Origin: Kocuria rosea subsp. polaris
GTDB taxonomy: Bacteria; Actinomycetota; Actinomycetes; Actinomycetales; Micrococcaceae
NCBI GenBank assembly: GCA_023896275.1
Contig: MLDA01000002.1
Coordinates: 124,001-188,000, forward strand
Length of the DNA stretch: 64,000 bases
Reading direction: 5' to 3'
Part shown: positions 31,664 through 35,017 of the stretch, in pieces
Position numbering within the stretch: position 1 is the stretch's first letter
How the letters are laid out: the number at the start of each line of letters is the position of its first letter
The notes under the pieces: generated by a model
The model's database searches: none
What the model was told of the DNA's origin: nothing
Seen by the model: the letters and a program-made list of their open reading frames with translations, nothing else
Translations under genes and position numbers: made by a program

Positions 31664-31697
31664 AAAAGCCCCGCAGATCAAGGGATCTACGGGGCTG
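31664..31697. repeat. 34-bp direct repeat, distal copy (candidate att site)
   Basis: Identical over 34 bases to 34890-34923, in the same orientation, and itself a hairpin with a T-tail on the minus strand. The other copy is the terminator of tRNA-Ser(CGA). The two copies bracket 3.2 kb of mobile-element debris, as expected for the two ends of an integrated element. Removing one copy and the interval would place the tRNA terminator directly upstream of the proline dehydrogenase gene. Confidence 0.75.
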
Positions 31698-32327
31698 GGT
31701 TGCCGGACCAGATCTGCTTCCGGGAGCTCGCCGTTGACGTAGTCCAGGGGTGAGGCGAACCGGGCGTGAACGGCGTGGTGCTGGTCATGCGCCGTGTGCA
31801 GTACTGCGTTGGAGGACAGCCGCGTGCTCTTCGGCGCCGCCAACAGCAGACCCGGGGACGCACCGGTCTTGCCATTGCGCTGGAACGGGCCGCAGCAGAG
31901 CATATTCACCGGTGGAATCAAGCACCCCTACGGATAGAGGCGTGAACGTTTGCTGAAGTGGATCTAGCGGTGTGGCAACACATTAATGTCCATGAGCCCT
32001 GATTCGTTACACCATTCCGCGTGCTCCACATCTGATATGTAGGTTATTCCTGTCAAGAGGCAGAGCTGAGCGGTCCGCGACTGGTTGTCGTGGACCGCTC
32101 TTCTTTGTTCCCGTCAGCCTGTGGTGGCCGGGGCCGGCGCGTCGTGTTCGACGGCGTTGTCAGACTGATATGCGCGGGTTGGTTACCGCAGGACGAGGTG
32201 TTCGGCTGGAGGGTGACCGCTGGTCTAGGTACCGGGCGTGGCCAGCACTGCTGGCTGCTCATAGATGTATCGCGGGTTTCCTCCACGCTGCCGGGACCGA
32301 TCGGTCATCAGTGCCGACGGGAAGTCT
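31698..32327. other. Non-coding or decayed left part of the integrative element
   Basis: No convincing gene. A minus-strand frame (31601-31921) reads through the repeat and contains LLLAAPKSTRLSSNAVLHTAHDQHHAV, which I cannot place in a family and regard as a possible remnant. A + strand terminator is at 32068-32108. The right-hand part, roughly 32100-32327, is probably the 3' non-coding end of the IS110 element. Confidence 0.5.
32068..32108 (+). terminator. Orphan intrinsic terminator
   Basis: GAGCGGTCC (32068-32076) pairs perfectly with GGACCGCTC (32092-32100), loop 15 bases, followed by TTCTTTGT. A classical Rho-independent terminator for + strand transcription, but no + strand gene is recognisable upstream; it may be left over from a lost cargo gene. 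Confidence 0.6.
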
Positions 32328-33431
32328 CTACTCAACCGGCCATGGGTGCTCCTGTTGCACGGGTGCGGCCAGGGACCAGCACCAACCGGCGAGCTCGCGG
32401 GCCACGGCCACGTTCGCGATCACGCGTCGTTTCCGGCGGGCCTCGAACTTCTCCCACTGCCGGTGCAGTCGGTGGTTGCCCTGGTGTCCGCGGACGCGGG
32501 AGACTTCGTCGGCACGGTCCTAGCGGGCCTGCATCTCTCGCGAGGGCTGGTATCTGCGCCGGTGGTGCCAGGCGGCTTCGACCAGGAGCCGGCGGGCGTG
32601 GGTGTTCCCCGTTTTGGTGATCGGGCCCTGGGCCCGCGTCGCGCCGGAGGAATGTTCCGACGGTGCCAGGCCGAGGTAGGCGCCGATGGTCTTTCCAGTG
32701 AATCGGGTCCAGTCTCCGACCTCGACGGTGAGACCAAACGCGGTCAACACGCTGATCCCGCGCAGACACATCAGTGCGTGCACGATCTCCGCGTACGGTT
32801 CCGATTCCGCCAGCACCGTGATCCGGCGGTCGAGTCCGTCGCGGCGAGCGAGCGTGAGCTCGACCGTTTCCAAGCAGGAGTCGTACGTTGCTTGCAGGAC
32901 CGGGTCCTCGAAGCGTTGTCGATGCAGCCATGCGTGGTGGGCGTTCGTCCAGGTCCGTCCGCCCGAGTACACGATGCCGTGGCGCAGCAGCAGTTTCGAG
33001 AGCCGGTGCCGGGCCCGCATCAGATCTGCCCGGACGTCTTCACGGGCGCGGACCAGGTCCCGGGCCGCTTCGCGGCGGGTTCCCGGTACTGTCACCGGCG
33101 TGATCTGGTCCAGCAGGTTCAGCCGGGCGAGGTGCTCGGCGTCGCGGGCGTCGGTCTTCACTCGGTCCCCGGGTGGGCGCTGGAGCTTCGACGGAGCGGC
33201 GACCACGCATGTGAAGCCGGCAGCTTCCAGGGCCCGGGCGAGTCCGAACCCGGTCGGGCCGGCCTCGTAGACGACGCGCACCGGTGGTCCCAGTCCCTTG
33301 ACCCAGTCCACGACCCCGGTGTTGTTCCCTGGTAGTCGCTGTCGGAGGATCTCGCCGGTGCGCTGATCGATCGCGCAGCCGACGATGCTACGGGCATGGA
33401 CATCCAATCCGACGTAGGTACGCTGGTTCAT
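32328..33431 (-). pseudogene. IS110-family transposase interrupted by an in-frame amber codon
   Basis: IS110 recombinases combine a RuvC-like DEDD domain with a C-terminal serine domain. Here GLDVH supplies the first Asp, YEAGPTGFGLARAL the Glu, and KTDARDAEHLARL the last two Asp; the transposase-20-type part reads IGAYLGLAPSEHSSGATRAQGPITKTGN, with the Ser-rich site. Translation from ATG 33431 (GGAGG seven bases upstream) runs 303 codons to TAG at 32520-32522, then continues in frame for 63 codons (HRLHRQWEKFEARRKR... VAVARELAGWCWSLA), the normal IS110 C-terminus, to TAG 32328. So one nonsense mutation, probably TGG to TAG, removed the last sixth. Both catalytic motifs remain upstream of the stop; activity is uncertain. 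Confidence 0.9.
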
Positions 33432-33542
33432 GACTGGAACCTCCAGACGTTCAAATGTGGCTCTACCAGTCCACACCCGCCACGGCGGGATGGGAACAGG
33501 ACCGGCAACCCACGTGGATGCTTTGAACGCGAGGTTCCAGTC
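33432..33542 (-). ncRNA. Candidate IS110 bridge RNA / structured leader
   Basis: The 111 bases directly upstream of the transposase ATG are enclosed by a perfect 12-bp inverted repeat (33432-33443 with 33531-33542); a second helix CGTTCAAA/TTTGAACG stacks just inside it, and a CCCGC/GCGGG hairpin lies in the middle. The transposase ribosome binding site is inside the 3' arm. IS110-group elements encode a bridge RNA in exactly this position, upstream of the recombinase; assignment here rests on position and structure only, with no guide loops verified. Confidence 0.45.
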
Positions 33543-33620
33543 CTACGTGCAGGACCGGCCCCACTTCATATCGTCTAGACGCCCCTACGATTCGCCTTGC
33601 TTGCCACGTAGGGTCACCCC

Positions 33621-33971
33621 ATGGGACTCAAAGATTGGGTGAAGGATGCCCCCGTTGCGATGTTCGACAAGGTGGTCTTGCGTAAAGATAGGGTGCAAAT
33701 GCTGTCAGGGGCCGATAAGGGCAGCTACCCCCTCCAAGGAGTGGAGGCCACTGTTGATACAGGAGAGGCCCTATCGAAGCGGGTGACTCTGACCCGGCTA
33801 GTGGCTACCGGGGCGTTTGCTCTGGCTTGGCGCAAGAAGCAAGGCGGGGAGTCCTTTTTGGCGATAGAGGGGCCAGACTTTGCCTGGATGGTACTCGTCA
33901 AGCGGGGCCAGTATGCCAAGGCGAAGACATTCGCGGCCAAAGTCAACGAAGCAGCGAGGCTAGCTGCCTAG
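33621..33971 (+). CDS. Small hypothetical protein (116 aa) inside the element
   Basis: No named family. It has an N-terminal DWVKDAPVAMFDKVVLRKDRVQM, then YPLQGVEATVDT and LVATGAFALAWRKKQGGESFLAIEGPDFAWMVLV, a pattern of short beta strands plus a C-terminal helix AKTFAAKVNEAARLA that resembles small PH-like proteins common in actinobacteria. Codon use is noticeably less G/C-biased than the core genes, fitting acquired DNA. The start is leaderless in appearance: TAGGGT, CACCCC, ATG. It looks intact and may be the only functional cargo of the element. Confidence 0.7.
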   Translation: MGLKDWVKDAPVAMFDKVVLRKDRVQMLSGADKGSYPLQGVEATVDTGEALSKRVTLTRLVATGAFALAWRKKQGGESFLAIEGPDFAWMVLVKRGQYAKAKTFAAKVNEAARLAA

Positions 33972-34889: not shown

Positions 34890-34923
34890 AAAAGCCCCGC
34901 AGATCAAGGGATCTACGGGGCTG
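34890..34923 (-). terminator. tRNA-Ser terminator and second 34-bp repeat (candidate att site)
   Basis: On the minus strand this is a hairpin (AGCCCCGTAGATC pairing with GATCTGCGGGGCT) followed by TTTTTC, starting four bases after the tRNA-Ser 3' end. The same 34 bases occur at 31664-31697. It serves both as tRNA terminator and, by inference, as the attachment sequence. Confidence 0.8.
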
Positions 34924-34926
34924 CTC

Positions 34927-35017
34927 TGGCGGTGACGGTGGGATTTGAACCCACGGTACGGGGTTACCGTACACAACATTTCGAGTGTTGCACCTTCGGC
35001 CGCTCGGACACGTCACC
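34927..35017 (-). tRNA. tRNA-Ser (anticodon CGA)
   Basis: 91 bases including an encoded CCA end. Acceptor GGTGACG pairs with CGTCACC; the anticodon loop reads CTCGAAA, giving CGA for UCG codons. A long variable arm (GTACGGTAACCCCGTAC) confirms a class II serine tRNA; T loop GGTTCAAATCC is standard. It borders the integrative-element remnant. Confidence 0.97.

What the first reader, a model, noticed from the sequence alone, without database searches (positions are those of the whole stretch)
33432..33542. Structured 111-nt region upstream of IS110 transposase: candidate bridge RNA
A 12-bp perfect inverted repeat closes the region, a second helix stacks inside it, and a GC hairpin sits centrally. 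This is the place where IS110-group elements encode the bridge RNA that pairs with target and donor DNA. The closing helix also buries the transposase ribosome binding site, so the same fold could repress translation. If real, the guide loops would tell the target core at this locus.
Basis: partly seen in the sequence, partly recalled or inferred. Interest (0 to 1): 0.65.

Follow-up and report, generated by a model that had tools for sequence, protein, structure and literature searches.

The report
Transposase leader hairpin, not bridge RNA
The folded RNA in front of this jumping gene's transposase is real and conserved across many actinobacterial elements, but it most likely keeps transposase production low; the RNA that guides the element to its target is encoded at the other end, after the transposase gene.

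Summary
The structure is real; the bridge-RNA reading is wrong. The region is the 5' leader of an IS110-superfamily transposase mRNA (minus strand, ATG at 33431). Relatives, and target-site duplications restored when relatives are removed, place the element at 32034-33576 (1543 bp), with subterminal inverted repeats, a GL-P----SG motif and a 294-nt 3' non-coding region, as in the IS1111 type. That 3' region (32139-32296) encodes the bridge/seekRNA: its guide ACATCTA is complementary to the window's own target TAGATGT. Across 66 distinct guide/target pairs, the four target bases after the AG core match the guide at 80, 95, 89 and 79% (245 of 330 matches over five positions, against 108 +/- 8 permuted). 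The 5' region shows no such signal. It is nevertheless a second conserved RNA: 17 of 26 pairs show compensatory changes across 35 elements, it precedes the transposase in nearly every relative with a 5' end held, and Rfam lacks it. Its closing helix covers the Shine-Dalgarno sequence, so I favour translational repression of the transposase, as reported for ISPpu9. This copy is probably inactive: a TAG interrupts the transposase at codon 304.

The parts
32034..33576 (-). Whole IS1111-type element, counting one copy of the AG core (1543 bp)
   Evidence: Conserved ends in relatives; removing two relatives restores the 6-bp duplications of their IS481-like target
33575..33576 (-). Left core AG, within CTAG
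32032..32033 (-). Right core AG; target continues ATGTGG
33564..33572 (-). Left subterminal inverted repeat GATATGAAG
   Evidence: 8 of 9 bases complementary to the right copy; 9 of 9 in several relatives
32034..32042 (-). Right subterminal inverted repeat CTACATATC
33431..33543 (-). Conserved structured 5' leader (the finding)
   Evidence: Covariance model hit, 69 bits; covariation; fold
33531..33542 (-). P1 5' arm GACTGGAACCTC
33432..33443 (-). P1 3' arm GAGGTTCCAGTC, overlapping the Shine-Dalgarno GGAGG (33440-33444)
33522..33528 (-). P2 5' arm GTTCAAA; partner TTTGAAC at 33449-33455
33457..33513 (-). P3: GTGG/CCAC, conserved internal loop GUUG (33506-33509) / UAGAG (33461-33465), then CCGGTCC/GGACTGG and the GC hairpin
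32328..33431 (-). Transposase gene, interrupted by TAG at 32520-32522 (codon 304)
32139..32296 (-). 3' bridge/seekRNA region
   Evidence: Conserved in 78 loci; target covariation; consensus fold
32262..32268 (-). Target guide ACATCTA, complementary to top strand TAGATGT of the right target
32223..32228 (-). Left target guide CTAGAC (same as top strand)
   Evidence: Sequence identity to the left junction; not tested by covariation at scale
32165..32172 (-). Probable donor guide CATATCAG (identical to the right end)
   Evidence: 8-nt identity; 8.7% of shuffles do as well in this copy, conserved in relatives

Best explanation
The 111-nt region is the structured 5' leader of the transposase mRNA of an IS1111-type element. 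When the leader folds, helix P1 pairs the Shine-Dalgarno sequence with an upstream CCTC and keeps transposase translation low; the conserved P2/P3 core inside P1 sets the stability of that closure and is a candidate binding site for a factor that opens or locks it. Target and donor choice is made by a separate RNA from the 3' non-coding region of the same element. Shown here: the structure, its conservation, its place over the Shine-Dalgarno, and the location and target covariation of the 3' guide RNA. Inferred: transcription through the leader, repression of translation, and any regulating factor.
For: Fold z -4.75; 17 of 26 pairs with double changes, 0 of 500 shuffles; GGAGG invariant and paired; leader directly before the transposase in nearly every relative with a 5' end held and in 29 of 30 loci checked from other genomes, the exception being interrupted by another IS110 element; guide-target covariation lies in the 3' region and not here; a fold over the RBS represses transposase translation in ISPpu9 (PMC8450116).
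Against: No expression data. P1 is strong enough that some opening factor or co-transcriptional route must exist, and none is identified. A plain RBS hairpin does not need the strongly conserved internal loop. No promoter match was found at the consensus threshold. The window copy has a disrupted transposase, so it is not itself a good test case.
Confidence: 0.72

Rival explanations
1. One reading: the 5' region is the bridge RNA, with guide loops for donor and target.
For: Position 5' of an IS110-family transposase, where IS110-group elements encode theirs (PMC11208160); real structure.
Against: No target covariation, no complementarity beyond shuffles; a guide RNA with strong target covariation is in the 3' region.
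Confidence: 0.03
2. The leader is an aptamer bound by the transposase or its guide-RNA complex, giving autoregulation. This is compatible with, and more specific than, the best explanation.
For: Near-invariant CGUGGGUU and GG...CC core inside P1; exclusive association with this transposase clade.
Against: No binding data; no motif shared with the 3' RNA was recognised by eye.
Confidence: 0.22
3. An antisense RNA opens the leader, as Asr9 does in ISPpu9.
For: Precedent (PMC8450116).
Against: No antisense promoter match in the scan, and the scan covers only sigma-70-like consensus sites.
Confidence: 0.1
4. Leader CGUGGGUU pairs with AACCCGCG of the 3' RNA, so the guide RNA itself controls translation.
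For: 8-9 bp complementarity in most elements.
Against: Five elements with leader CGUGGAU keep the unchanged 3' sequence, giving an A-C mismatch without compensation; both segments have cis partners. Chance matches of this length between two conserved segments are not rare.
Confidence: 0.05
5. The inverted repeat acts as DNA, as a transposase binding site or cruciform.
For: It lies close to the left end.
Against: Asymmetric conserved internal loops, G-U pairs accepted in helices, a fixed place over the Shine-Dalgarno, and a distance to the left end that varies from 103 to 295 nt.
Confidence: 0.04

Closest known systems
IS1111-type elements with a 3' seekRNA (ISEc11, ISPa11, ISKpn4; PMC11187229)
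   Same: Subterminal inverted repeats, long 3' non-coding region, GL-P----SG motif, guide complementary to the top strand lying 5' of the bottom-strand match
   Different: Shorter inverted repeat (9 bp), longer transposase (367-368 aa against 330-350), and a second conserved structured RNA in the 5' leader
ISPpu9 5'-UTR (PMC8450116)
   Same: Structured 5'-UTR over the RBS of an IS110-family transposase, with a separate sense RNA downstream of the gene
   Different: ISPpu9's effect was shown by experiment and depends on an antisense RNA; here the evidence is covariation across many elements. Homology between the two leaders was not tested
IS110-group bridge RNA of IS621 (PMC11208160)
   Same: RNA-coding region between left end and transposase (position only)
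   Different: The 5' region here has no guides; the guide RNA is at the other end

Membership tests
IS110 superfamily (DEDD transposase) | DEDD N-terminal and Transposase_20 C-terminal domains | tested here: met
   PF01548 E 2e-15, PF02371 E 4e-17; NF033542 E 9e-63
IS1111 type | Subterminal inverted repeats of 11-13 bp (7-17 in another source), with 6-7 bp outside on the left and 3 on the right | tested here: inconclusive
   GATATGAAG/CTACATATC, 8 of 9 here and 9 of 9 in some relatives, 6 bp and 2-3 bp outside; short for the type
IS1111 type | Longer non-coding region downstream of the transposase | tested here: met
   294 nt downstream, 143 nt upstream
IS1111 type | GL-P----S(T)G motif | tested here: met
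   GLAPSEHSSG in the translation
IS1111 type | Downstream guide RNA with the top-strand complement preceding the bottom-strand match | tested here: met
   ACATCTA precedes CTAGAC; target covariation
IS1111 type | Transposase of 330-350 aa grouping with IS1111 in a phylogeny | tested here: not met
   Length 367-368 aa; phylogeny not run. I therefore say IS1111-type rather than IS1111 family
Bridge RNA / seekRNA (for the reported 5' region) | Segments that match and covary with the target | tested here: not met
Bridge RNA / seekRNA (for the 3' region) | Segments that match and covary with the target | tested here: met
Bridge RNA / seekRNA (for the 3' region) | Bound by the transposase and required for recombination | not testable with these tools
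   Needs purification and RNA sequencing
RBS-sequestering transposase leader (as in ISPpu9) | Conserved fold that pairs the Shine-Dalgarno sequence | tested here: met
RBS-sequestering transposase leader (as in ISPpu9) | Weakening the fold raises translation | not testable with these tools
   Needs reporter fusions
Any Rfam family | Score at or above the curated gathering cut-off | tested here: not met
   Only tRNAs in the window; no credible hit in 32000-33700

The most novel reading that the evidence does not exclude
The leader is an undescribed family of cis-regulatory RNA whose conserved core is recognised by the element's own transposase or guide-RNA complex, so that an RNA-guided recombinase controls its own synthesis through a second dedicated RNA.
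Probability: 0.22. Interest if true: 0.65.

Novelty: new variant of a known kind. Interest (0 to 1): 0.45.

Why it matters
Position alone (5' of the transposase) is not a safe way to annotate bridge RNAs: here a conserved, well-folded 5' RNA is not the guide. A genome paper assigns the guide of a Kocuria IS110 element to the upstream region on the general rule (PMC12500396); I did not test whether that element belongs to this clade. The 3' guide has an easily read 4-nt target code across dozens of elements, so targets of this clade can be predicted. The leader offers a direct, testable handle on how an RNA-guided transposase is kept in check.

Tried and rejected
Bridge RNA in the 5' region: rejected by the covariation scan and the complementarity test. 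Leader to guide-RNA pairing: an attractive 8-9 bp match, but natural variants are not compensated. A hairpin upstream of P1 that could compete with it (CCGGUCC/GGACUGG): present in the window and L037 but not in other close relatives by eye, so not pursued. Known Rfam family: none. Empty site of this very insertion in 149 genomes of the family: not found. Relatives among solved structures by sequence: none. Phage copies: none.

Full report
The observation. On the minus strand the sequence from 33542 to 33432 folds as described: a perfect 12-bp closing helix, a second helix stacked inside, and a GC hairpin. The minimum free energy is -59.1 kcal/mol against -42.5 +/- 3.5 for shuffles, z -4.75. 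The Shine-Dalgarno GGAGG at 33444-33440 lies in the closing helix, shortly before the ATG at 33431.

The element. The protein is an IS110-superfamily transposase. Close relatives share conserved ends: CTAGAC-GATATGAAG on the left and CTACATATC-AG on the right. In one related genome (G207) two copies sit exactly at the ends of copies of a 1.06-kb IS. Its transposase looks like the IS481 family to me (recalled, not tested), and unoccupied copies are preceded by CTAG plus one base. Rejoining the flanks of both copies restores the 6-bp duplications CCTAGC and CCTAGA found at the other end of the same IS copies. This fixes the boundary: a shared AG core, with the element at 33576-32034 in the window. 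The finding therefore lies inside the element. The non-coding region is 143 nt upstream of the transposase and 294 nt downstream.

Where the bridge RNA is. The downstream region contains a block conserved in 78 loci, nearly all from Actinobacteria. It has a fixed frame around a variable segment just before CTATG. The reverse complement of that segment predicts the bases that follow the core AG at the right junction. In the window, guide ACATCTA fits target TAGATGT; in L120, CACAACTA fits TAGTTGTG; in L037, ACACCTA fits TAGGTGT. With a fixed rule for choosing the junction, 66 distinct guide/target pairs give matches of 80, 95, 89 and 79% at the four positions after AG and chance level (27 and 26%) beyond. 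Over five positions 245 of 330 match, against 107.6 +/- 8.5 with permuted pairing (maximum 135 in 2000 permutations). A column scan recovers the same four positions as an antiparallel diagonal at z 11-14. The consensus fold has a target loop with two guides around a hairpin, and 14 of 25 predicted pairs show compensatory changes. The order of guides and the downstream location are those of the IS1111 type (PMC11187229; PMC11208160). The left guide (CTAGAC) and donor guide (CATATCAG) are assigned by identity; I did not test them by covariation at scale.

What the 5' region is. The same scan applied to the 5' region finds nothing comparable (best z 3.9, scattered), and the window's own leader has no more complementarity to donor or target than shuffles. 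Yet it is conserved. Leaders of 35 diverse relatives align with near-invariant CGUGGGUU and GGAGG. Under one structure 93.0% of cells pair, 17 of 26 pairs show changes on both sides, and none of 500 shuffles reaches any measure; sliding the partners drops pairing to 34-51%. I defined the structure on this alignment, so the slid control favours it, and related sequences can exceed shuffles; the number of distinct pair types in P1, P2 and P3 is the stronger point. A covariance model finds the leader directly before the transposase in nearly every relative whose 5' end is held, in 41 of 295 genomes of the family and in few genomes of a phylum-wide sample (strict filters). Of 30 loci from other genomes that I checked, 29 lead straight into an IS110-type gene; in the exception, L159, another IS110 element interrupts the leader's end. 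Rfam has no such family.

How it most likely works. P1 pairs the invariant Shine-Dalgarno sequence, and the neighbouring pairs have been kept by compensatory changes, which is what selection for a closed ribosome binding site would leave. The closest precedent is ISPpu9, where a 5'-UTR fold includes the transposase RBS, mutations that weaken it raise translation, and an antisense RNA appears to open it (PMC8450116). I infer the same kind of role here. The strongly conserved core inside P1 suggests recognition by something; the transposase complex is the natural guess and is untested. Direct pairing of leader and guide RNA is possible on paper, but natural variants break it without compensation.

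State of this copy. The transposase frame has a TAG at codon 304 (32522-32520), where four close relatives have tryptophan and run to 368 aa. The genome holds only two other fragments of this element. The copy is probably inactive, so tests belong in intact relatives.

Limits. There are no expression data; the sequences share ancestry; the target rule comes from one clade; placement inside IS1111 proper was not tested by phylogeny, and the transposase is longer and the inverted repeats shorter than is usual for that type.

Noticed in passing
31664-31706 and 34890-34932: A 43-bp direct repeat (91% identical) of the terminator region of a tRNA-Ser gene brackets the 3.2 kb that holds the element: probably the remnant of an island integrated beside that tRNA.
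   Followed up: no
32068-32100: A 14-bp stem-loop just inside the right end, conserved in close relatives, with its T-run on the + strand: a likely terminator against antisense transcription entering the element.
   Followed up: no
L117, L118, L122 (also L037, L119): Relatives insert precisely at the ends of an IS481-like element, at its CTAG duplication; the element thus parasitises another IS.
   Followed up: partly
L035 and L036 (own genome): Two relics of the same element in the genome: a left end with an internal deletion and a solo right end.
   Followed up: partly
L072 2314-2501; L050 near 1643: Elements of this clade sit next to or inside leader fragments of other copies.
   Followed up: no
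L121: A close relative whose guide (TTGACCTA) and target (AGATCA) both differ from its sisters: natural reprogramming, with mismatches.
   Followed up: no
32520-32522: In-frame TAG in the transposase where relatives have tryptophan; the frame is otherwise open to 32330.
   Followed up: yes
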